Shown here one piece after another: positions 1 through 61,375 of a stretch of DNA of 64,000 nt. Position 1 is the first letter of the stretch; each line of letters starts with the position of its first letter. The stretch is from assembly GCF_026914265.1 (NCBI RefSeq), contig NC_069123.1:53314473-53378472 (forward strand). Direction: 5' to 3'. This stretch comes from Mya arenaria (taxonomy: Eukaryota; Mollusca; Bivalvia; Myida; Myidae). A program made the position numbers and the translations under genes. Under the pieces are notes generated by a model, which was not told where the DNA came from, searched no databases, and saw nothing but the letters and a program-made list of their open reading frames with translations.

Positions 1-3000
1 TAATCGAACCTACCCCTTTCCTTGCATTACAAAATACGCCCATGTTATTTGAACCTACCCCTTTCCTTGCATTACAAAATACGCTCATGTTAATCGAACC
101 TACCCATTTCCTTGCATTACAAACTACGCTTATGTTAATCGAACCTATCCCTTACCTTGTATTACAAACTACGCTCATGTCAATCTAACATACCCCTTTC
201 CTTGCATTACAAACTACGCTCATGTCAATCTAACATACCCCTTTCCTTGCATTACAAACTCCACTCATGTTAATCTAACATACCCCTTTCCTTGCATTAC
301 AAACTCCACTCATGTTAATCGAACGTACCCCTTTCCTTGCATTACAAACTACGCTCATGTCAATCTAACATACCCCTTTCCTTGCATTACAAACTCCACT
401 CATGTTAATCTAACATACCCCTTTCCTTGCATTACAAACTACGCTCATGTCAATCTAACATACCCCTTTCCTTGCATTACAAACTCCACTCATGTTAATC
501 GAACCTATCCCTTACCTTGCATTACAAACTACGCTTATGTTAATCGAACCTATCCCTTATCTTGCATTACAAACTACGCTCATGTCAATCTAACATACCC
601 CTTTCCTTGCATTACAAACTACGCTCATGTCAATCTAACATACCCCTTTCCTTGCATTACAAACTCCACTCATGTTAATCTAACATACCCCTTTCCTTGC
701 ATTACAAACTCCACTCATGTTAATCTAACATACCCCTTTCCTTGCATTACAAACTACGCTCATGTCAATCTAACATACCCCTTTCCTTGCATTACAAACT
801 CCACTCATGTTAATCGAACCTATCCCTTACCTTGCATTACAAACTACGCTCATGTTAATCGAACCTACCCATTTCCTTGCATTACAAACTACGCTCATGT
901 TAATCGAACCTATCCCTTACCTTGCATTACAAACTACGCTTATGTTAATCGAACCTATCCCTTACCTTGCATTACAAACTACGCTCATGTCAATCGAACC
1001 TATCCCTTACCTTGCATTACAAACTACGCTCATGTCAATCTAACATACCCCTTTCCTTGCATTACAAACTACGCTCATGTCAATCTAACATACCCCTTTC
1101 CTTGCATTACAAACTCCACTCATGTTAATCTAACGTACCCCTTTCCTTGCATTACAAACTCCACTCATGTTAATCGAACGTACCCCTTTCCTTGCATTAC
1201 AAACTACGCTCATGTCAATCTAACATACCCCTTTCCTTGCATTACAAACTCCACTCATGTTAATCTAACATACCCCTTTCCTTGCATTACAAACTCCACT
1301 CATGTTAATCGAACGTACCCCTTTCCTTGCATTACAAACTCCACTCATGTTAATCTAACATACCCCTTTCCTTGCATTACAAACTACGCTCATGTCAATC
1401 TAACATACCCCTTTCCTTGCATTACAAACTCCACTCATGTTAATCGAACGTACCCCTTTCCTTGCATTACAAACTCCACTCATGTTAATCGAACGTACCC
1501 CTTTCCTTGCATTACAAACTCCACTCATGTTAATCGAACGTACCCCTTTCCTTGCATTACAAACTCCACTCATATTAATCTAACATACCCCTTTCCTTGC
1601 ATTACAAACTACGCTCATGTCAATCTAACATACCCCTTTCCATGCATTACAAACTCCACTCATGTTAATCGAACGTACCCCTTTCCTTGCATTACAAACT
1701 ACGCTCATGTCAATCTAACATACCCCTTTCCTTGCATTACAAACTCAACTCATGTTAATCGAACGTACCCCATTCCTTGCATTACAAACTCCACTCATGT
1801 TAATCGAACTTACCCCTTTTCCCTGCATTACAAACTACGCTCATGTCAATCTAACATACCCCTTTCCTTGCATTACAAACTCCACTCATGTTAATCGAAC
1901 GTACCCCTTTCCTTGCATTACAAACTACGCTCATGTCAATCTAACATACCCATTTCCTTGCATTACAAACTCAACTCATGTTAATCGAACGTACCCCATT
2001 CCTTGCATTACAAACTCCACCCATGTTAATCGAACTTACCCCTTTCCTTGCATTACAAACTCCACTCATGTTTATCGAACTTACCCCTTTCCTTGCATTA
2101 CTGAAACTACGCCCATGTTAATCGAACCTACCCCTTTCCTTAATTTACAAACTACACCCATGTTAATCGAACCTACCCCTTTCCTTGCATTACAAATTAC
2201 GCTCATGTTAATCGAACCTATCCCTTACCTTGCATTACAAACTACGCTCATGTTAATCGGATCTATCCCTTTCCTTGCATTACAAACTATGCCCACGTTA
2301 ATCGGACCTACCCATTTCCTTGCATTACAAACTACGCCCATGTTAATCGGACCTACCCATTTCCTTGCATTACAAACTACGCTCATGTTAATCGAACCTA
2401 CCCATTTACTTGCATTACAAACTACGCTCATGTTAATCGAACCTACCCCTTTCCTTGCATTACAAAATCCGCCCATGTTAATCGAACCTACCCCTTTCCT
2501 TGCATTACAAACATCGCTCATGTTAATCGAACCTACCCTTTTCTTTGCATTACAAACTACGCCCAAGTTATTCGGACCTACCCCTTTCCTTGCATTACAA
2601 ATTACGCTCATGTTAATCGGACCTACTCCTTTCCTTGCATTACAAATTACGCTCATGTTAATCGGACCTACCCCTTTCCTTGCATTACAAATTACGCTCA
2701 TGTTAATCGAACCTACCCCTTTCCTTGCATTACAAATTACGCTCATGTTAATCGGACCTACCCCTTTCCTTGCATTACAAATTACGCTCATGTTAATCGG
2801 ACCTACCCCTTTCCTTGCATTACAAATTACGCTCATGTTAATCGGACCTACCCCTTTCCTTGCATTACAAATTACGCTCATGTTAATCGGACCTACCCCT
2901 TTCCTTTCATTACAAATTACGCTCATGTTAATCGAACCTACCCGTTTCCTTGCATTACAAACTCCGCTCATGTTAATCGAACCTACCCCTTTACTTGCAT

Positions 3001-3092
3001 TACAAACTCCGCTTATGTTAATCGAACCAACCCCTATCGTTGTTTTACCAACTACGCCCACGTTAATCGAACCTACCCATTTTCTTTCATTA
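1..3092. repeat. 45-bp satellite array, about 68 copies
   Basis: A 45-bp unit is repeated head to tail from the first base of the window, so the array continues upstream. Each unit holds a core CCTTTCCTTGCATTACAAA followed by a variable half. Two main variants (GTTAATCGAACC and GTCAATCTAACA types) alternate irregularly in 1-2100, a higher-order pattern. From about 2200 to 3000 the units are a third, more uniform type carrying ATTACGCTCATG. Because 45 is a multiple of 3 and the unit lacks stops in some frames, long reading frames arise on both strands (1752-3176 plus, 2225-3061 minus). These are repeat translations, not a protein I recognise. Small length changes near 1820 and 2100 shift the frame. 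Confidence 0.97.
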
Positions 3093-8840: not shown

Positions 8841-8945
8841 GTCCACTTTCCCACGGATTAAATCTGGATTTTTCATTAAATATTGAGTAAGATGTGATCA
8901 ATAAATTGCAAAACAGTGTTACTGTATAACATAACAGTCAAGAAA

Positions 8946-26116
<17,171 letters not shown>

Positions 26117-27398: not shown

Positions 27399-27664
27399 TA
27401 TTGTGCCATATTGATAACAAGTTCTGGTGATATTGTTTACCAGGAAATGAATCAACCCCTTTTAAAAGTAGAATGGTTGGCTTTTATTGTAAGTATAATT
27501 TGAAAATAACCAGGCCACAGAACTGCACAACTGGATGTTTGTGGCTCACACGAATATTGTCCAGTCCCTTCTAGAAGAGCTTGTTCCACAAAGTGAAATA
27601 TAGCCTGTTACCCTAACCCTAGTTCACATCTAGGGTCAGTACATTTCATGGTGATAATGAGCAG

Positions 27665-28430
27665 AAGACAAAAAATATTCATATGCTGCCAAAGGTTGGC
27701 GCATAGTTAACACACTGACACAACTTTGTCTTCGCAATAACTTGTGTTATTCTTGATGGGATTCATTTAAACTTCCAAGAATTGTAGAGAATTATGGGAA
27801 AGTGTGACACACAATTCATACTAATTCAAAGATCAAGGTCACACGTCCTAATGCAAAGTGGATTTCATAGCATGCTGAATAATGTCCTTTCCATAATGTT
27901 TTAACTATTAATGGAAATGTTATCAATTTTCACAGTACTGTAGAGAACACTGTGAATGTGTGTTGCATAAGATTCATGCTGTTATTGGCAAGTTTAAGGT
28001 CATACTTGGATGTCAATGTTGTGTCTCAGCAAAATCTAAAAGCTCTACTATTAAAGTAATATGAGAGCTATACTACTCGCCCAGGTGAAGGGCATCACAC
28101 CTTTGTTAAGGCTTTACATGTTAGCACATTTCAGCAACTTTTAAGTCTTGATAAATTGAAAACTAAGATTTTGCATGTAAAAGGACTGCCAAGTGCCATG
28201 GAAGGTGCATCGCACTCAAAAATTGTGCTATTTATCTCAAAAGATCAAGTCAATATTGTTCACTATGGACTTCATAGCAAAACTTCTTGTCTCAGCCATG
28301 ACATTATTATTCATGGCAATTCAAACTTTACAGAATTGTACAATACCATGGTAAGGCGTGTTTCATACAAGATTTGTTCTTTTATCTCATAGGTCAAGTT
28401 TATACTGGTCATAGTTATGACTTTCATTGA
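27665..28430. repeat. Decayed pearl-like repeat between KAT6 and SelU
   Basis: It begins ATGCTGCCAAAGGTTGGCGCATA, resembling the start of the element at 14419, and contains two or three diverged units of 'AATTGTAGAGAA...AAGATCAAGGTCACAC' type. Too decayed for exact borders. No gene is seen. Confidence 0.5.
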
Positions 28431-28443
28431 AACAATTTACAAT

Positions 28444-28449
28444 TTTATT
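28444..28449 (-). terminator. Candidate poly(A) signal (AATAAA) of the SelU gene
   Basis: On the minus strand this reads AATAAA. It lies about 60 bp beyond the SECIS hairpin and about 1 kb past the SelU stop codon, so the mRNA would end near 28425 and include the SECIS. Confidence 0.5.
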
Positions 28450-28507
28450 ATCAAAAACATGCTATATAACATTTAATCTTACTACTTAAGAGTCGCAATG
28501 TGTTAAA

Positions 28508-28588
28508 GACTACCTCCGAACTGAAGTAACATCTATTCACAAACATAATATTTTGTTCATGAATTTCATAAACTCAGCAGAAATAGTC
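28508..28588 (-). promoter_or_regulatory. SECIS element (selenocysteine insertion hairpin) of SelU
   Basis: On the minus strand the order is GACTA, CTGA(G), a short internal loop, ATGA (28569-28566), one A, ATTCATGAACA, the loop AAATATTA, TGTTTGTGAAT, AGAT (28534-28531), a short loop, TCAG, TAGTC. Helix II is 11 continuous pairs including two G-U wobbles. The ATGA/AGAT pair supplies the tandem G-A quartet. The unpaired AA opens the apical loop 12 nt from the quartet. The lower helix is supported by CTGA/TCAG and GACTA/TAGTC. This fits a type I eukaryotic SECIS. It lies about 0.9 kb downstream of the stop codon of a gene with an in-frame TGA. Confidence 0.88.
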
Positions 28589-28889
28589 TATACCACGGAC
28601 CTTATTACATGTGTAATGGTATACAAACTATACATACAATTTTTTCATACAATATTAAATTCAAGCACTTCAAAAACACAACGTGATTTTCATACCATAC
28701 TTTAATACGATTTCACATAAAAATATAATTGGCATTAATTCATAACCATAATATTGATAAACAAAACCTGAGCCAAAAGACGTATTTGAAAAAGGTGAAG
28801 CAACAATGTAAGTCATCTTAAAAGGATTTTAATACTTAAATCCCAGTTCATAAAAAATGGCATTAATTTACATGGCAGTGTCTGCTAAA

Positions 28890-29090
28890 CTTAACCATGG
28901 TAGCAATTCTAAATTGCTCTGCTGGATATTACCATGGTAGGAATTATACAAGGTTCAGCTCAATATCATCATGGTAATAATAGTATATTGTTCTGCTTGT
29001 ACCATGGTAGCAATTATATATTGTCCCAACTTGATATTGCCATGGTAGTTATTCTACATGGATCTGCTCAATGGGCAATGTTCATGGTCC
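28890..29090. repeat. Degenerate ~37-bp tandem repeat in the SelU 3'UTR
   Basis: About six units spaced 33-42 bp apart, each with a [CT]CATGG core (28895, 28932, 28969, 29002, 29040, 29082), mostly as CCATGGTAG, followed by an AT-rich half and a CAGCT/CTGCTTG-type word. They lie between the SelU stop codon and its SECIS. Confidence 0.7.
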
Positions 29091-29473
29091 AGTGTAAACA
29101 TTTACAAGATTTATTTCCATGGATTACAATTTAAACTAAACTATCCAGGTGGAAATACACACTAATTATTTATTTAAAAGGACTTCCCTTGGCCTGCAAC
29201 AAAAACAACACGCTGTTCTTTGGAGAAACCTTATGGATAGTATTTACTACTACTATACTGATCATAAATAGGCATGTATTTACTTCCTAATATTACCGTA
29301 AAAGGTTTAACAGAAATATATTCCAATAACTATACATTCATGTCAAAAATATTATTGCCTGAATTGAATGTATCAATATTTTTTAAAACTTTGAAGATAA
29401 AACTTTGTCCCGGTTAAGGTAAGGGAATAACAATAAATACAAACAACCATGAAACAAAATAACATTGTCTTCA

Positions 29474-31155
29474 CTATGACTTGGGTAAATTTGACCTCTG
29501 GATGGCCTCTCTGACCATGTCAAGGTTTGCAATGTCTCCTATCTTCATTTCATTATGCTGGAATAAGACACCCTGATCTCCTGGCCCCACCACAAACACG
29601 GCTGCAACAAATTGAAAACAAGTGTCATATATAAATAATATACATGTATATACAAGCTACCGAGACATTTGATAATGATTACAAAGGATTAAGAGTAACC
29701 TTTCTTTTGATGAAATTGCTACTACCTTTTAATTTTATTAATCATTTATTTATTCTTTTACCCCAATTTGCAAACCTATTCTTCTATAATTCCTACCAAA
29801 AAATTGAAAAAAACAAGATGTGAAATTTGTTCACAACAAATTGAAAACCTTGATAAAGCTGAGTGTACACAAGCCATGTTAATATTTCATCTACTGTCTG
29901 TGGATGAGTGCCTCCAAAAAGTATTTTTCACCATACTGACAAAGAAGTTACCTCCAAGCAGTCGACCCTCTCCTTTCAAATTGCCTGGGACGCCTTTTTG
30001 CCAGATACTGAACACTTGCCACAGTGACTCGTAGTTAAAAATTCCAGGAATGTTCATCCATCGCTCGTGTGGACCATAAAATCGGCGCTGAAGTCAAATT
30101 TCCTAAACAATCAATAGCTCTTCTTTTCATTGACCTACAAAAACTACCGTACAATTTATTTTTGGAAAAAAAAGTTAAGCTTTAAACTTGTTTAATTGAA
30201 AAATTGCTTTCACTGAAATTGTTTACTCTGTAGAAGTTTTCATTTGTATGGTTGTCATTTCATTGGAACTAATTCACTAAAATAATATCAACACGAAACG
30301 CTAGCAATATGTTGCATAATTAATACATACTGGTAAAATATGGACTGAACAGCTAAAACAAAGTAACATGTACATCCCAGTATGTTTACAACAGACAATG
30401 CCTTGAGTAATCTGTATGCATGAATACCTCAAGGTCCAGATAGACATCTCCCTTGATGAAGGGTTTGAAGTCGTCTGCACCGAATGCCTCATGGACCACA
30501 GCATGCAGGCGGACACCGCGGGCCTCCATCTCCGGTAGGAGAGACGACAGGCCCTCAGCTTCCTGAAATACAGGCAAAAATCAAGGTATAATCCTAAGAC
30601 ACTTGCAAATGGATAATTGACTCAGATATTTTATAAACCCGAGAAGAATGTAAATAATGTTGTGACAGAATGTTTGGATTTGAGTGTAGCTTGGTCTAAG
30701 AAAATACATGAGTATGTTCAACATACCAGGTAATATGAAACATTCTTAGGAAATGACAAAAATCTTAGGAATCACTTACCGCCCTACACAAAGATCATCC
30801 AGGCCTTCGGACAGCCATTATAACTGCCCCACGATTACTCCAGAGTTCACTTGCCTAAATTGAAACAAATAATCTTTATTTGGGAAGAAATAACAACATA
30901 AAACTAATACAAAAGGTGCGTAAGACATGTATACACATGTACATCATCTCATGTATATTATAAGTATGCAAAATGCAAATAACTACTTACACTAAAGTTA
31001 CGTTTCTGTTCATCCAATGATTGTAGTTTGCTTTCTGCCAGATACTGCAGAGAGGCTGCTTGGGGTTTGGTAACCATGGTGGCTGCCAGGTTGCAGATGA
31101 TGGAAGCACCTGCCCCAACAGCTGCTAGACCCATAAACAGTTTTGGCAGGCCCAT
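29474..31155 (-). CDS. SELENOU: Selenoprotein U (PRXL2A/FAM213A-type thioredoxin-fold protein)
   Basis: Peroxiredoxin-like redox protein of the PRXL2/SelU family. Exons in transcript order: 31155-30991, 30854-30780, 30562-30428, 30087-29952, 29601-29474; all joins are GT-AG and phases close exactly, giving 212 aa (human PRXL2A 229). The N-terminus is a hydrophobic anchor-like segment (MGLPKLFMGLAAVGAG) before KPQAASLQYL. Exon 2 reads ELWSNRGAVIMAVRRPG-TGA-SLC, so the family's CxxC becomes U75-S-L-C78. Then come LHAVVHEAF, KGDVYLDLE, a FYGP motif, GNLKGEGRLLGAVFVVGPG and a short C-terminal helix. The downstream SECIS at 28508-28588 supports decoding of TGA as Sec. ATG 31153-31155 is the first in-frame ATG after an upstream stop. 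A splice acceptor before 31194 implies a 5'UTR exon, perhaps ending at 32127 (donor GTAAGT). The alternative, a pseudogene stop, is unlikely because the rest is intact. Confidence 0.93.
30795..30797 (-). other. In-frame TGA read as selenocysteine (U75)
   Basis: Codon 20 of the 25-codon second coding exon. The context is R-R-P-G-[TGA]-S-L-C-R, where the Cys homologs have R-R-P-G-C-x-L-C-R. The exon is 75 nt and phase 0 at both ends, so a gene predictor that skips it still keeps frame and loses the active site. Confidence 0.9.
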
Positions 31156-31194
31156 ACTGCCTGCACGTGGGTTACTGGGTGTTAACACTCAGTC

Positions 31195-33683
31195 CTAAAA
31201 GTAAAACCATTTATGTATATTTCTAAATGAAGTTTACTCATAAGAAAATATATCTGATAAAAAAATAACAGATCTGGATGATACTTACTGAAAAAAGCAA
31301 CATATTTCTGAGTTCTACTTTCCAACTTGCTAAGGCTTTACCATGTTATATATGTAAGTATGGTATATATTAGATTTCACCTTGTTATCAATCTACACTC
31401 AGAGAGCCTCTTTAATAGTCGAATTAGTGTGGCAAGAAGGAAAAGAGCTCCTGCAATTACATTTGCAGAAGTATCCTAAATTATGACCTGCACTAGAAAT
31501 ATTCGTTGAGGCAAGGGAGGCGCATCTCCCCAACCGCAATAATGGTCTACCGTAAGAAAACTATTTCTGACAAAATGGTAGAAAGAGTATGCATAGAAAA
31601 CACAATTTAAAATGCACCAATTTAGTATATATATATATATACAGTATTCCTTTTGGTGTTTGCACAGTTGACAAAAGCATATTCTGTATTATGTTTTCCT
31701 AGCATAACTATCCTATCTACACATACATTAAAACATATGCTAGGAAAACAGTTCTGTGGGTTTTGGGGGGAGGGGTGGGGTGGGTGGAGGGCACATATCT
31801 CCAGCTGCATCCCAAAGTTATCGATACCCTTGTAGTCTCTGAGTCAAAATCTCGACTGCCACTGACACGTTTCCAGACTGTGACCTAAATGCATGCATTT
31901 TTTCTTAATTCTTAAATGCTACAATTTACTGTATAGTTATTTGATGGAAGAGAGTGACCTCTTGTGGGCATCATATTTCTAAAATACAAATGATACATTT
32001 TTTTTTATAAAACAAGAACAACTTTGATACCTGATAAATTTAAACTTAAAAGCAAAATGATGACGAGTAAAACGTTTTTAAAATCTGTATTAAGACTGCG
32101 AGCTGACACTTGTTTTTAATACTTACCCGTTAATCACTTTAATATTAACACACTCTGCCCTTTCCTGAAATCCACTGTGGAATGGATGTTAAAGTCTATA
32201 CTGTACACAAGCAACAGCGATAAGGTACTAGCATCTCTGACATTAAACTCTATACACTTACAATTTAATGTCGTAAAACATTTCAACATAATTTTCAACA
32301 CGAATTCTTATTTTTAAATGATATTGAAGATAAAAAAAAAATGACATTTAGATTATGCATTAGAAGAAAATTGTATTTTAAATTTGACACGCAAATATCA
32401 CATCTGTGCAAAAAAACGGGCACCGAAGTGGACATTTTTCAACGGCTAGAAGCAAATTCCGGCAGACTTAACAAACTTAGAACTGATTTTTAAATCTTTT
32501 ATCAGATCAAATGTTAACTATTGTCCTATCATTTTGCATTATTGTGTAGTAAGAAAAACATTGAAAAATTAGAAAACTTCAATACAGGGCCCTTCTTATG
32601 AAATTATGTACAGTCTCATAGTTATAAAATTTTAACTCATATCAATTTAATCCGTATATACCAGTACAGTTTAAGCTACGCAAACATGTAGTTAATATTC
32701 CTATACAGTAGGGTAAGAACTTCCATATACAATATATGTCAAAAAATAAATTTCCTGTTACATGTGTCGTTTTAACTAAAGCTGTACATAGTTTTATAAA
32801 AATGTAAGCTACTTGTGCTTTACATTGCTGTCTACCATTATTTCTTTTCGGTGTAATCATGGCAGTTGTATCTCATGTACAATTCATCAAGAACATTTTG
32901 AGCTGTATGTCTATTTATTTTCATTGTTTTTTTAAGTAGTTTTACCTGCTTGTAGACTTCTTGTACACTGCTCAATACTTGATGTGCTGTGGTAGTATTG
33001 TATAGTGTAAATATTAATGTCTTAGCTAAATCGGAAGCGTTTATGCTTCAAAGTTATTAGACCCTTTGCGCCTAATCTCCATTTACAGTTTTTACCATGC
33101 TCAACTCTATATTTATCCTGCATTTAATTTCATTCTGAAAGTACATTTTACTTCTCATTTGTCAAAATTACTCAGATATATCATATGTCTCCAATGCCAT
33201 GTGCTTTGCAATGTCTTTTGTACTTTTTCGCAATCAGCTTTTGTATTGATCGAAATTAGATATATTTGCATTTTTAGATTTTAGTTAAAAAAAATCACTG
33301 AATATCAATTCAAACATAAGCATAACGTCTGAATAATCTTGTAAGCATATTTTAATAAACACATTTGTTAGTCACATGTGTTATATTTTATTATTCTCGT
33401 ATGTTTATAATGCTCTAGATATCTATTTAGAATCGGTTTATTTATAAATAATCATATGATATCGTTTATATCTGAACTTTTTTGCTAATACTATTTAATT
33501 ATATACTTATTTTAATGCATTTATTATCTTCCAGATTCTGTGTTGCATTATTGATATGGTATTTGTTTTGCACTTTGTCGGAAAATAGCTGTGCGAGCCA
33601 ATATTGTAAGTAACGTTAACTACATTTACTTGTATCTTGACTCTACAAAATTATTAATTGGATGATTTAACTATCTACCTGTA

Positions 33684-38694: not shown

Positions 38695-40300
<1,606 letters not shown>

Positions 40301-55700: not shown

Positions 55701-58700
55701 CCAGACTCACTAGATGCCATGTTACAAGAGCGGGGTGGTAACCTTGATGAAGATGGAGACGTGTTTGACCTTGGGAAGGTGGCAGACAGCATGAAGTCAT
55801 TTGTAAAGAAAATCTCCAGTGTAGAGGGAGCAGAGGTTCCAGGGTGAGATTTTATGATAGTTATATATTTATATATTCAATATTAATTAACAAAACATAG
55901 GTTACAGTAGATATTCTCTCAAACAGTAGAGTAAGATGTCATATTGGCATATTTGATGAAGTTGGTCAAATTGACAACAGTTTAAAATAAATTACCTCTA
56001 GATTTATTTTTCCTGGGCCAATGTTCAATATAAATGTTATCCTTATTCTTATACATTGCTCAGTGATTCCATTGAGTCAATTGGTCAATTAATTTTACAG
56101 TCCAATCAAAACACTTAGATTCTACTCATAGATATAAGAGTTGTTTATTGAATACGGCCCCTGGTTTTCTTAGTATGAAGCTATGAAAGAGTGCATTTTG
56201 ACTTGATATTTGAGTGTGATTGACTTTCTGCCATCCTTGCTTTCAGTGCTGATGATGAAGATGATGATGCAGACATTCAGTTTGATGGCAGTGGCTTCAT
56301 CAACGCAATGCAGGAAATGTTTGGTACGAGACCTTTGCCAAGATTTCTGTCTCATAAAATGTTAATGTGATAAAATTGCTTGTGGATAAATTGTTTATTA
56401 ATTACGATAAGATGTTTGTAAAGTAAAGGTTTATTCTTAAAAAAAGGGATAAAACAGAGGTACAAAGAGATTGGTGATTTACATGTGGATGTATGTTTGC
56501 CATGGAAGATGGCCAGAACAAAAACTAGACAAGTATTGAAAGATGGAGTTGTTTTAAATATTCTTTCAATTTTTACAATTTCCCTTGCTATTTCAGAGTT
56601 TGATGACGATGCAAGTGTATCAAGTTCTGACATGAGTGAGTATGGCTGGGAGGATGACTCAGACAACGAAGGTCGGGGAAAAACCAAAATTAAGCGGCCC
56701 CCATCACTTGACAGGTACATGGATGTCATGGACCGGGAACTCGCCAAGACTGATGTTGGGAAAAGCTTTGAAAGGCAGAGCAAACCACAGGCAAAGAAAA
56801 CCACGAAGGTTTGTGTGCATAATGTAACATAGTGATATACTATAACTATTGAAAAGTAATTATCCATTCCAATCTTAAGACCAGGATTATCAGGTCAATT
56901 TAAGTCCCATCAAAACTGTGCAAAACCTTGACTCTGATATAACCTTGAATACATGTAGTGCAAATGTAAGTATGCTATCTTTGTCAGGTGCAACATGTTA
57001 CAGTTATTATATTTTTTTATATTATTATTTATAAGGGCCCTGCAAAAGTTTGCAGTGCTGTATAGTTATCACACTGTCTGTCCACTTTTTTTGGGGTTAA
57101 TTACAATTTTTCATATTATGTTAATTGAAAACCTTTTTATGTGTACTTTTTAAACAACCATCCCTTTCAACACGGAACGCTTTGACACATCATGGCATTT
57201 GCCAATATTTTACTATGCTTAATCATATTTGTGTGTTTTCTTCATCATTTTAAAATATGAACCTATAAAGATCAGTGAATACCTCTTTTATGCCTGCTCA
57301 ATAACTTTAGGAACCTTTGTCCAATCATCACTAAATTTGGTCAGCATGTGTATTGGCATGCTGTCTTAGACACATATAATACCTATACAGTGCAATCCCT
57401 CAAACAGGTGATTTCTTGAGAGCTGTGGATTAGTCACGGTTGAGGCTTTGTCGCCACCTTCATTCCTTCTATTTTTATATGAAATGTACTGACGATTGAT
57501 CGAAACCTAAATAAGTGGAGGACTCGAGCACCATTGGGGGTCCCAAATACACAAATCATACACAATAGCCTATGATTACCTCGAGGTCATAATTTCACAC
57601 AGTTTCTTGAAAGTATGTTCCAAAAAACAACAACAATTGAGATGTGTCAAAATTTTCGCAAGATGAAAAAAATGTTATCATAAATATGACAGATGATAGA
57701 AAAATTCAAAACGTGTGAAAACCGATTATCAATGTTTAAGCATGACCGATTTTAATTGACAAGTTCATTTGGGAATTGTGAAAAGGTTATGATGAGAATT
57801 TTATTGTGAGAAATGTAAATGAGAAATTAACCTAACAATAAAACCCTACCATAATAGTTAACCAGGAATCAACTGTAAAATGAATATCGAAAATGCTATT
57901 CATTCACTTTTTTTTCGCATTAAGTATACGATAGCCTTTGAACATATGAACAATTTCTACAAGGCAATACAAAAACTGTGCCAATGTGTTGTAATTTTTT
58001 AACCAGGTTTTCAACGAAAACCACGTTATAAGAATGAGGTTGTCGTTGGGCGGGCGGGCTGGCGGGCATCAAACATTGGTTTCTTTTCAATAACTTTAGT
58101 TAGCATCGATAGATATTGATGAAACTTGGTGTAAAGGTAGCTTATGGGAAGAGCTAGCTTGGGATTGCTTTTGAGGGGGGTGGGGCTAAGGTCAAGGTCA
58201 CTGTTACTAAAAATAGAAAAATGTTTTCTGCCCAATAACTTAAGTTAGCATTGATAGATATTGACGAAACTTGGTGTGTAAGTTGCTTATGTGAAGAGCT
58301 AGCTTGGGATTGCTTTTGAGTGGGGAGGGGCTAAGGTCAAGGTCACTATTACTTCAAAAAGAAAAATGGTCAAGGTCACTGTTACTTAAAATAGAAAAAT
58401 GGTTTCTGCCCAATAACTTTAGTTAGCATTGACAGATATTGATGAAACTTGGTGTGTAGGTAGCTTATGTGAAGAGCTAGCTTGGGATTGCTTTTGAGGG
58501 GGTGGGGCTAAGATCAAGGTCGCCTGTTACTAAAAATAGAAAAATGTTTTCTGCCCAATAACTTTAGTTAGGATTGATAGATATTGACGAAAGTTGGTGT
58601 GTGTTAGCTTATGTGAAGAGCTAGCTTGGGATTGCTATTGAGGGGGGAGGGGCCAAGGTCAAGGTCACTGTTACTTAAAATAGAAAAATGGTTTCTGCCC

Positions 58701-61375
58701 AATAACTTTAGTTAGTATTGACCGATATTGATGAAACTTGGTGTGTAAGTTGCTTATGTGAAGAGCTAGCTTGGGATTGCTTTTGAGTAGGGAGGGGCTA
58801 GGGTCAAGGTCACTATTACTTAAAATAGAAAAATGGTCAAGGTCACTGTTACTTAAAATAGAAAAATGGTTTCTGCCCAATAACTTTAGTTAGCATTGAC
58901 AGATATTGATGAAACTTGGTGTGTAGGTAGCTTATGTACAGAGCTAGCTTGGGGTTGCTTTTGAGGGGGGTGGGGCTAATGTCAAGGTCGCCTGTTACTA
59001 AAAATAGAAAAATGGTTTCTGCCCAATAACATAAGTTAGCATTGATAGATATTGATGAAACTTAATGTGTAGGTAGCTTATGTGAAGAGCTAGCTTGGAA
59101 TTGCTTTTAAGTGGCGAGGGGCTAAGGTCAAGGTCACTATTACTAAAAATAGAAAAATGGTTTCCGCCAACAGTAATTTTCTGTTACGTCTCTTTTTGAT
59201 AAAAGTAAAGATAAAGTCATACAACAAATTAATTGGCTATAATTTCTGATTGCCAATAACAAAAACCTGGTTTCGTCACATTGTGGCGCTTCTAGTTTTT
59301 ATATATATATTGGGAAATGAAATATTATGAATATTATTTAATACATGTAATATGTAATATTAGTTACAGATGTAATTTTGCTTTATAATGATGAAGTAAA
59401 TGTTGAGAAATTTTAAACTTATATAAGCAGGGTTCGAATTTAACTTTGAGGAGCACTCGCAAAATTTTGCGACTGCTTTTTGAGGCAACTCGCAAAATGA
59501 AAAATCAACTTGCAATTTTATTATTTGCTTTATTCCCTTATAATATTGTCTAATTAAAGTAGATGTATATTTACACCTAAGACATATTATGAATATCAAA
59601 AAACACAATTTTGAGTGACTCGACTACTAGAACTTGTTGATGGCTTATTCTTTTTGGGGGGTACAAATGACTCATCGGATGCTGGCCGCTTTTTTGATAA
59701 CAAATTGTTCACTTTGGCACTTTGAAGGGTGGGGGGGGGGGGTATATTTACCCTCGCCATCGGGCAATACTCATACGGCAAGCACGCTGCAGATTTCATT
59801 AAGTCTATAGATAAGTATTAAAAACAATAACATTATAAATTTAAAATGAATAAAAGCAACAGTAAATGTAGCGTGGATGCTTTGGACTATAAAATTTATC
59901 TATTTGTCTATTCACTTTGACAGTTGGGCGGATATTCAAAGGTTGATGGGTTTTACTTATAGTGCGCGAAAGCGCTAAATTTAGCCAATGATTGAGCTAG
60001 GTCATTACGTCATTTGTATTCACTTTGTATAATGCACGCCTCGGAGCATCCCAGAAAGATTCGAGTATTGCCTTTTCCGTATTTGTTCTATTTTTGAAAA
60101 CTTACTAGAGCGTGACTCCGTACTGACTTCTCTATACTGGTAGAGTAAACATTCCACTGATATTGGCTGTTTACACTCGACTACGAAGCGGAGTTATTAA
60201 GTTCATGTTTATTCTACTTTCCTTTTAACATTTTGTTGTCTAGAAAAAGCCACTCGCAGAATTTTGCGAGCTTGAATAAAAGTCACTCGCAATTTGCAAA
60301 TGTCGCTCGCATTTTGCGAGCATGCGAGTCTAAATTCGAACCCTGATAAGTAAGGTAAAATATTACGAGACGACTTCAAACTTTGAAAATAAGGCATTTT
60401 ATGACTAAATTGGAAACTCAGGGTAGCCCGAAACATTTGGATTACACGAGGTTTTAGGTAGGGACATGGCATCCTCAAGTTTTTTACAGTTTTATTGTAC
60501 GTAATACATAATGTATCATATATATATTTTGGTCAGGATATGCAATAAATGGTAGTAAAAAGCAATTTCATGCTTAACTTTTGTCAGATTTTTGGCCATT
60601 TGTATACTTGGAAATTCTGAACTGTTGAATTCTGTACTATTTTCACTGGATTGCTGAAAGTCCAGACATTTCCATTGAAATGGAAACGTCTCCATACACA
60701 AATAATGATCTTTTCTGAATTTAAGTAACATTAATATCTCTTTAAAGTAGATGTATATGATGATTGACTGATAGATTCTTAGTTAAATACTAAATAACAC
60801 GCCTTCAAATTGCACCCCCTTTCAAATAATATGCTTTCATTTTTGTGGCCTTTATCACTCCTGTGATGGCACTAGTTTGTTTCTGTTTTATCTGTATCAT
60901 TTGTACAATTAGCTATCTTAAAAAACTGCAGGAGCCATCTGGAAACAATTCCAAGCCACCAAAGGACATAGATGAGGAGGATGATGACTTCCAACCAGTG
61001 GACATCGACCTGAATGCTGTGAAGAATTTGTTGGAGTCATACGGTGCCCAGGAAGGACTTGCCGGCCCCACCTCCAACATCCTGGGCAGCATGGGGCTGG
61101 TTCTGCCCCCTAACTTGGACCACACACCCAACGGAACTACACCTACTAATGAGAATATTGAAACTATAAGTGCTCCATTACCAGCTGAGGGGAACAAAGA
61201 TAAGCCCCAACCGCCCACAGTTCCCCCCAGGGTCAGGGAGAAAGGTAAGCCAGCTCCTCCACCCCGCCCGGTGGTCCCACCCCGAAAGGGGCAATCAAGC
61301 CCTAAATCCCAGGCAGCCAAACCACCACCAAGAGTTTCCCGTTCAAGAATTGACAGCAAGGAAACAGATGTCTAA
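43763..61375 (+). CDS. ECD: ECD (ecdysoneless/SGT1 family)
   Basis: Conserved regulator linked to R2TP, PRPF8-dependent splicing, cell cycle and, in flies, ecdysone synthesis (family knowledge). Exons: 43763-43964, 49088-49205, 51300-51387, 51808-51986, 52225-52366, 52753-52803, 53312-53440, 53689-53823, 54274-54359, 55294-55394, 55678-55843, 56247-56323, 56597-56808, 60932-61375; 2130 nt = 709 aa (human 644). Phases close at every junction. Family landmarks: IWQNEGFKLK, NVEDEWFIVYLLYQLT, FLLIEAADALPKWLNP, NGELHIIPVP, HCFIPAQMAAIL, AFYYRDPMDL, CLYAQLVHQTFQPDRRSG, DLGMKLAHGFEILC, DDSWLTLTPDSLDAML, acidic stretches in exons 12-13 and VDIDLNAVKNLLESYGAQEG. After about residue 628 the tail is proline-rich (PTVPPR, PVVPPR) and ends KETDV. 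The start ATG is the first of its frame and matches the divergent promoter. Confidence 0.94.
43965..49087 (+). other. ECD intron 1 (5.1 kb)
   Basis: No exon of another gene is seen on either strand. It is AT-rich and holds the MITE at 45655-45922. Short frames on both strands lack family resemblance. A TGGTCTAGTGG word at about 45125 resembles a tRNA A-box, but no B-box or cloverleaf follows. Confidence 0.6.
45655..45922. mobile_element. 268-bp MITE with long inverted ends, ECD intron 1
   Basis: Left end ATTGGGCCGATTGTTCAGAA and right end TTCTGAACAATCAGCCCAAT are inverted copies with one mismatch. The similarity continues inward through AAGTTAACAACA and GTTAACG/CGTTAA words for about 75 bp per side. 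Small size and no reading frame point to a non-autonomous DNA element. Confidence 0.85.
49817..49971. repeat. Long perfect-type hairpin in ECD intron 2
   Basis: Arms of about 75 bp around a tight centre GGAGTCCTTCGGACTCC. Outer ends are TAAGGAATGAATTG and CAATTCATTCCTTA-like. Only a few mismatches are visible between the arms. A shorter hairpin TGCGTTCATC/GATGAACGCA lies upstream at about 49412-49435, and both share CAATTGCGTTCAT, so they may belong to one foldback element spanning about 49360-49980. Confidence 0.92.
50207..51184 (+). mobile_element. Dispersed element with palindromic ends, ECD intron 2
   Basis: It starts with a perfect 13-bp hairpin AGCTCTTCTGGCC / GGCCAGAAGAGCT (50207-50219, 50223-50235). 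It ends AGGCCCTTTTGGGCCTCTTGT, a second short palindrome followed by the CTCTTGTT terminus shared with other elements here. The interior has ATGAAACTTGTACAGTATA and CATTACTGGCCACACCC words and no long frame. Non-autonomous; the superfamily is not determined, but a Helitron-like 3' hairpin is possible. Confidence 0.7.
54660..55245. repeat. Decayed tandem repeat (about 3 units) in the ECD intron before exon 10
   Basis: Three diverged units begin at GGAGCACAACTTGAG (about 54719), GGAGCATAACTCGAA (about 54894) and AGAGCATTAGTTGAA (about 55037). Each has CTTCATATACAGATAGAT and GAGAAGTGCA followed by CATAACT. Likely the remains of a pearl-like element. Borders are approximate. Confidence 0.6.
58000..59300 (+). 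mobile_element. Pearl-like element with ~145-180-bp tandem core, last ECD intron
   Basis: The left end AACCAGGTTTTCAACGAAAA has its inverse AAAACCTGGTTT near the right end (59262-59273), and the unit ends GTGGCGCTTCTAG. About eight units carry CTGCCCAATAACTTTAGTTA, GATATTGATGAAACTTGGTG, GAAGAGCTAGCTTGGGATTG and GGGGCTAAGGTCAAGGTCAC. Some units hold an extra duplicated AAGGTCACTGTTACTTAAAA piece. Non-coding. Confidence 0.8.
59429..60347. mobile_element. 919-bp inverted-repeat transposon, last ECD intron
   Basis: Perfect 15-bp terminal inverted repeats CAGGGTTCGAATTTA (59429) and TAAATTCGAACCCTG (60347), flanked by a 5-bp ATAAG on both sides. Subterminal DNA on both ends repeats CTCGCAAAATTTTGCGA-type palindromes. 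A minus-strand frame 59799-59596 begins with ATG and encodes a 67-aa peptide rich in Pro, Ser and Lys (KKRPASDESFVPPKKNKPS), which looks protein-like but matches nothing I know. CAGGG...CCCTG ends resemble hAT elements, though the apparent duplication is 5 bp rather than 8. Non-autonomous. Confidence 0.85.

What the first reader, a model, noticed from the sequence alone, without database searches (positions are those of the whole stretch)
28508..31155. PRXL2A-family gene is a genuine selenoprotein (SelU): in-frame TGA plus SECIS
The second coding exon has TGA exactly where the family's first active-site Cys lies (R-R-P-G-U-S-L-C-R). All other exons are intact and in phase. A hairpin meeting SECIS rules (ATGA/AGAT quartet, 11-bp helix II, AA at the apical loop start, paired lower helix) lies about 0.9 kb past the stop, just before an AATAAA. 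Sec-containing members of this family are known from fish, birds and some invertebrates, while mammals have Cys. Automated annotation would call this a premature stop or skip the exon.
Basis: partly seen in the sequence, partly recalled or inferred. Interest (0 to 1): 0.88.

Follow-up and report, generated by a model that had tools for sequence, protein, structure and literature searches.

The report
Clam SelU selenoprotein gene, misannotated
A soft-shell clam redox gene appears to use a stop-like TGA codon, with an RNA hairpin after the gene, to insert the rare amino acid selenocysteine in its active site; this kind of gene is already known from other animals, but the clam's public record has the site cut out.

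Summary
Five minus-strand exons splice into a 212-aa peroxiredoxin-like 2A (PRXL2A/SelU1) protein. One in-frame TGA (30797-30795, codon 75) sits at the first residue of the active-site motif: R-R-P-G-U-S-L-C-R. About 0.9 kb past the stop, some 60 nt before an AATAAA, lies a hairpin that meets my SECIS rule. It is the only such site on either strand of the 64-kb window, and 0 of 5000 shuffled 3' UTRs matched it in full. The source is Mya arenaria or a very close relative: the public Mya PXL2A-like protein equals this one minus 11 residues around the TGA. Relatives' records break at the same place: of 120 listed N-terminal matches 117 end exactly at RRPG; of 120 listed full-query matches 38 begin two residues after the site. 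Sec-containing SelU1 is already reported from invertebrates, fish, birds, reptiles and platypus, so this is a new member of a known kind with a correctable annotation error. Not shown: transcripts, SECIS function, selenium incorporation. Rfam's models did not recognise the hairpin.

The parts
30991..31155 (-). coding exon 1, start codon at 31155-31153, N-terminal hydrophobic segment
30780..30854 (-). coding exon 2 (75 nt, phase 0 at both ends), carries the active site GAVIMAVRRPGUSLCRA
30795..30797 (-). in-frame TGA, codon 75, proposed selenocysteine (U of U-x-x-C)
30428..30562 (-). coding exon 3
29952..30087 (-). coding exon 4
29474..29601 (-). coding exon 5 with TAG stop (29476-29474)
28507..28589 (-). 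SECIS-type hairpin in the 3' UTR: helix I, ATGA (28569-28566) / AGAT (28534-28531) quartet, helix II 28564-28554 with 28545-28535, apical loop 28553-28546 beginning AAA
28444..28449 (-). AATAAA, proposed poly(A) signal

Best explanation
This is the clam's SELENOU1 (PRXL2A) gene. The ribosome decodes UGA at codon 75 as selenocysteine because the SECIS hairpin in the 3' UTR recruits the SECIS-binding protein, the Sec elongation factor and Sec-tRNA. The product is a thioredoxin-fold, peroxiredoxin-like redox protein whose U-x-x-C motif takes the place of the mammalian C-x-x-C. Shown here: gene structure, codon position, homology, a SECIS-type fold rarer than chance, and the broken site in relatives' records. 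Inferred: recoding, the redox chemistry, and nonsense-mediated decay of the mRNA when selenium is short (the last exon junction lies 286 nt after the TGA).
For: Intact 212-codon frame apart from one TGA. PF13911 E 5.2e-17. Public Mya arenaria protein P0002 is identical apart from lacking VRRPGUSLCRA. In the 120 homologues listed of 141 found, the Sec position holds Cys in 65, Trp in 1, is missing in 7, and 47 begin after it, 38 of them two residues after. In the N-terminal profile search (120 listed of 311 found) 117 end exactly at RRPG, 2 continue with Cys and 1 has no RRPG; those ending there include Dreissena, birds, platypus, Callorhinchus and a record named Selenoprotein U of Agkistrodon. 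SECIS-type hairpin unique in the window and not matched in full by any of 5000 shuffles. A Cys-form snail relative folds confidently (pLDDT 92.8) with human prostamide/prostaglandin F synthase as best solved match. Sec-form SelU1 in invertebrates is reported in PMC3473315 (sections 8 and 11 read).
Against: Rfam's models give no SECIS match up to E 10. My SECIS rule had no positive control on known SECIS elements. The apical loop has only 8 nt, the lower end of the 8-20 nt quoted for a SECIS-like type I model made for Asgard archaea (passages of PMC11227280). Earlier signals at 29174-29169 and 29115-29110 (AATAAA) and at 28833-28828 and 28706-28701 (ATTAAA) could end some transcripts before the SECIS. 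4 of 982 sampled 111-nt windows of similar GC fold as well in plain energy (the sample may include overlaps with the hairpin itself and tandem repeats). No transcript, second-species SECIS or protein evidence was available. The public Mya model skips the site.
Confidence: 0.95

Rival explanations
1. The gene makes a shortened protein without the active site: exon 2 is spliced at an inner GT (after GCT, at the Val codon GTC) or skipped whole, as public gene models have it.
For: P0002 (Mya) lacks residues 70-80 and P0003 (Mactra) lacks the whole exon-2 stretch. Mytilus, Bulinus and Branchiostoma records lack the same stretch after ...MA. Exon 2 is 75 nt, phase 0, so skipping keeps the frame.
Against: The exon ends in a full GTAAGTGA donor whereas the inner site reads GTCCGA (sequence). 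The short form would lose the motif taken to be the active site, and it is what a gene predictor must do to avoid a TGA; it also leaves the SECIS unexplained. The Branchiostoma record has the same cut although a Sec-family SelU is listed for that species (table passage of PMC3473315).
Confidence: 0.03
2. A decaying pseudogene or sequencing error: TGA is a damaged Cys codon or a true nonsense change.
For: A single base separates TGA from Cys codons.
Against: The remaining 137 codons, splice sites and stop are intact; many other records break at the same residue (117 of 120 listed); a SECIS-type hairpin is present.
Confidence: 0.01
3. TGA is read through by a near-cognate tRNA, without selenium, and the hairpin is a chance fold.
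For: Rfam does not recognise the hairpin.
Against: TGA lies exactly at the redox Cys position and the hairpin has the quartet, the AA loop and both helices at once.
Confidence: 0.01

Closest known systems
Selenoprotein U1 (SELENOU1; PRXL2A/FAM213A/C10orf58), Sec form of fish, birds, reptiles, platypus and invertebrates
   Same: Same family and same UxxC position; the same RRPG break in database records; Sec forms described in PMC3473315 section 8 and passages of PMC3316567
   Different: Nothing basic; another species. Lottia gigantea is credited with one SelU in PMC3473315, subfamily not stated in the parts that I read
PRXL2A (adiporedoxin/PAMM) of placental mammals
   Same: Homologous, about 50% identity over 82-88% of the query in several mammal rows; CXXC motif needed for redox activity (passages of PMC5150245)
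   Different: Cys instead of Sec
Prostamide/prostaglandin F synthase (called SelU3 in PMC3473315; the name PRXL2B is recalled)
   Same: Sister family with the same fold and CxxC
   Different: Much weaker sequence match: 43.8 bits with X at the Sec position, against 196 bits for a squirrel PRXL2A (P0016) with Cys there

Membership tests
Selenoprotein U1 (Sec-containing PRXL2A) | AhpC-TSA_2 / peroxiredoxin-like 2 domain | tested here: met
   PF13911 62.7 bits, cut-off 27
Selenoprotein U1 (Sec-containing PRXL2A) | closest to PRXL2A rather than PRXL2B/2C | tested here: met
   named rows are mostly PRXL2A; prostamide/PGF synthase only 43.8 bits. No tree was built and no PRXL2C was compared
Selenoprotein U1 (Sec-containing PRXL2A) | in-frame TGA at the first Cys of CxxC | tested here: met
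   30797-30795, codon 75; 65 of 120 listed homologues have Cys there
[quoted passage not shown]
   by my own rule scan and shuffles and fold z -4.7. The rule was recalled, then compared with passages of PMC11227280 and section 11 of PMC3473315; it had no positive control. Against: Rfam's models gave no SECIS match up to E 10
Selenoprotein U1 (Sec-containing PRXL2A) | score by a dedicated SECIS predictor | not testable with these tools
   none offered
Selenoprotein U1 (Sec-containing PRXL2A) | mRNA holding both exon 2 and SECIS | not testable with these tools
   no clam transcript data; relatives were seen only as protein fragments
Selenoprotein U1 (Sec-containing PRXL2A) | selenium in the protein | not testable with these tools
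   needs 75Se labelling or mass spectrometry

The most novel reading that the evidence does not exclude
The 75-nt, phase-0 exon 2 may be a selenium-conditional exon: with selenium it is translated through UGA, without it the mRNA is destroyed or an in-frame isoform lacking the active site is made. The two public bivalve models (inner donor in Mya, whole-exon skip in Mactra) would then be real low-selenium isoforms.
Probability: 0.05. Interest if true: 0.5.

Novelty: new member of a known kind. Interest (0 to 1): 0.27.

Why it matters
It corrects a public gene model whose active site has been cut out, and adds a bivalve to the Sec-form SelU1 set. It also shows a cheap signature: records that end at RRPG, or begin at LCREEA, mark Sec-type SelU1 genes that ordinary annotation splits or trims. 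Five named gastropod records (Patella, Littorina, Batillaria, Babylonia, Nucella) carry Cys, whereas the five named bivalves that I recognised (Mya, Mactra, Dreissena, Mytilus, Solemya) and two other gastropods (Bulinus, Plakobranchus) have the site missing, cut or ending at RRPG. If borne out in DNA, that means loss of Sec within molluscs, and it would qualify the statement in PMC3473315 that all its invertebrate SelU1 proteins contain Sec.

Tried and rejected
Rfam scan of the window at gathering scores and of 27500-31200 at E up to 10: no SECIS; the two weak hits (a Bacillus sRNA and DLEU2_4) are on the other strand and below their families' cut-offs, taken as chance. The genome search on the window's own genome was tried six times and never answered, so paralogues and the Sec machinery in this genome were not checked. 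The paper PMC6885538 on molluscan selenoprotein P is not held; its title was seen only in a reference list. Literature: ten searches. 'Mya arenaria' with 'selenoprotein' gave two papers, on fish and reindeer vesicles by title, not opened; 'SelU'/'selenoprotein'/'bivalve' and 'selenoprotein U'/'mollusc'/'SECIS' gave two each, none on a bivalve SelU by title. So no bivalve SelU paper was seen in these listings of an open-licence library; that does not show that none exists. Pseudogene, sequencing error and plain readthrough were considered and rejected (see rivals). tRNA scan: none in the window.

A first splice had wrong borders for later exons and gave a broken frame; one search has the corrected ones. 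The queries typed for differ from the spliced product at two junction residues (E for A at 80, G for A at 170); searches had X and Cys at the Sec position. The corrected sequence was used. In one search, the 17 N-/C-terminal fragment pairs sharing a longest-contig length come from 24 C-terminal and 18 N-terminal rows picked by eye from longer lists, so this is an illustration, not a count. The length limit of that protein search (about 41-130 aa for a 74-aa query, though rows up to 152 aa are listed for the profile) favours truncated records; it does not explain why they end at the same residue. P0025 (Dreissena), counted among the 38, aligns badly at its start.

Full report
What is there. On the minus strand five exons splice into 639 nt: 212 codons and a TAG stop, with GT/AG introns and one internal TGA at 30797-30795, codon 75. 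The product matches Pfam AhpC-TSA_2 at 5.2e-17. Its best database match is a 201-aa PXL2A-like protein of Mya arenaria that is letter for letter the same except that residues 70-80, VRRPGUSLCRA, are missing. The window is therefore from Mya arenaria or a very close relative. The missing stretch fits a splice at the GT of the Val codon GTC in place of the exon's own GTAAGTGA donor, which removes the TGA (sequence). The Mactra antiquata model joins the equivalents of exon 1 and exon 3. Mytilus, Bulinus and Branchiostoma records lack the same stretch.

Is the TGA a Sec codon? In the 120 listed homologues (of 141 found) the aligned position holds Cys in 65 and Trp in 1, is missing in 7, and 47 start after it, 38 of them two residues after. 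The Trp row may be a TGA read under another code; that is a guess. A search with the 74 residues before the TGA gave 3 of 3 matches ending at RRPG. With a 9-sequence profile, 117 of 120 listed (311 found) end exactly there, 2 go on with Cys and 1 has no RRPG. Among those ending at RRPG are Dreissena, several birds, platypus, Callorhinchus and a record named Selenoprotein U; birds, reptiles and platypus are reported to carry Sec SelU1 (PMC3473315 section 8). So the clam breaks where known Sec-type genes break. The length window of the search favours short records, but not a common end point. DNA of these relatives was not available, so their stop codon was not seen.

The SECIS. The 111 nt 28490-28600 fold at -33.1 kcal/mol, z = -4.7, 0 of 200 shuffles as good. 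The hairpin has a long helix I, ATGA and AGAT forming the quartet, an 11-bp helix II, and an 8-nt apical loop beginning AAA. A rule scan finds it as the only site on both strands of 64 kb with strict and looser limits. In 5000 shuffles of the 3' UTR 20 had a raw match, 3 also folded with both helices, and none of these reached -20 kcal/mol, against -27.8. In plain energy it is less extreme: 4 of 982 sampled windows of similar GC fold as well. The rule was first recalled, then compared with passages of PMC11227280 and section 11 of PMC3473315, which says that almost all invertebrate SECIS other than many of the sponge's have the AUGA_AA pattern. The rule had no positive control. Against: Rfam's models did not match the hairpin even at E up to 10. 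It begins about 0.9 kb after the stop and ends some 60 nt before AATAAA 28449-28444; earlier signals exist at 29174-29169 and 29115-29110 (AATAAA) and at 28833-28828 and 28706-28701 (ATTAAA), so transcripts ending there would lack it.

How it works. Sec insertion at UGA directed by a 3' UTR SECIS is established in eukaryotes; that it happens here is inferred. Mammalian PRXL2A needs its CXXC for redox activity (passages of PMC5150245), so the clam's U-x-x-C is probably the redox centre. A Cys-form snail relative (P0008, 36-sequence alignment) is predicted with pLDDT 92.8, with human prostamide/prostaglandin F synthase as nearest solved fold and peroxiredoxins next. The active-site position was not mapped onto those structures by a tool. 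If UGA were not recoded, exon junctions up to 286 nt downstream would make the mRNA a candidate for nonsense-mediated decay (established rule, inference here).

Novelty. Sec-containing SelU1 is published for invertebrates, fish, birds, reptiles and platypus (PMC3473315 section 8 read; PMC3316567 passages), and Lottia is listed with one SelU (table seen in a passage). This is a further, bivalve member. What is new is modest: the corrected clam model, the RRPG/LCREEA fragment signature, and the hint that five named gastropods have Cys while the named bivalves, and the gastropods Bulinus and Plakobranchus, look Sec-type.

Noticed in passing
window 28894-29068: The 3' UTR holds a decayed tandem repeat of about 37 nt (4.8 copies, 63% matches) around an ACCATGGTA motif, upstream of the SECIS in the transcript.
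   Followed up: no
window 8898-26116 (+): A convergent neighbour, perhaps one gene: an ORF with a SAMD1-type winged helix and a linker-histone-like domain, ORFs at 13324-13824 and 16211-17221, and an 863-aa ORF rich in Ser, Gln and Met; the latter ORFs have no Pfam match. It looks like KAT6A/B (that name is recalled, not from a call).
   Followed up: partly
P0022: An unnamed-source SelU1 relative has Trp at the Sec position (RRPGWRLCREEA); possibly TGA read under a code with TGA=Trp.
   Followed up: no
P0012, P0025, P0134 (Dreissena polymorpha): Dreissena SelU1 seems annotated in separate pieces: an 88-aa record ending RRPG and a 137-aa record beginning MCRAEA, all three listed with the same chromosome-size contig length; P0025 hints at a second copy.
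   Followed up: partly
window 1-3092: Satellite array, 45-nt unit, 68.6 copies, 91% matches; it gives long chance ORFs on both strands.
   Followed up: no
window 14484-15910, 38793-39833, 58088-59168: Further tandem arrays with units of about 145-363 nt; the first and third have the GGTCAAGGTCAC motif in their printed units.
   Followed up: no
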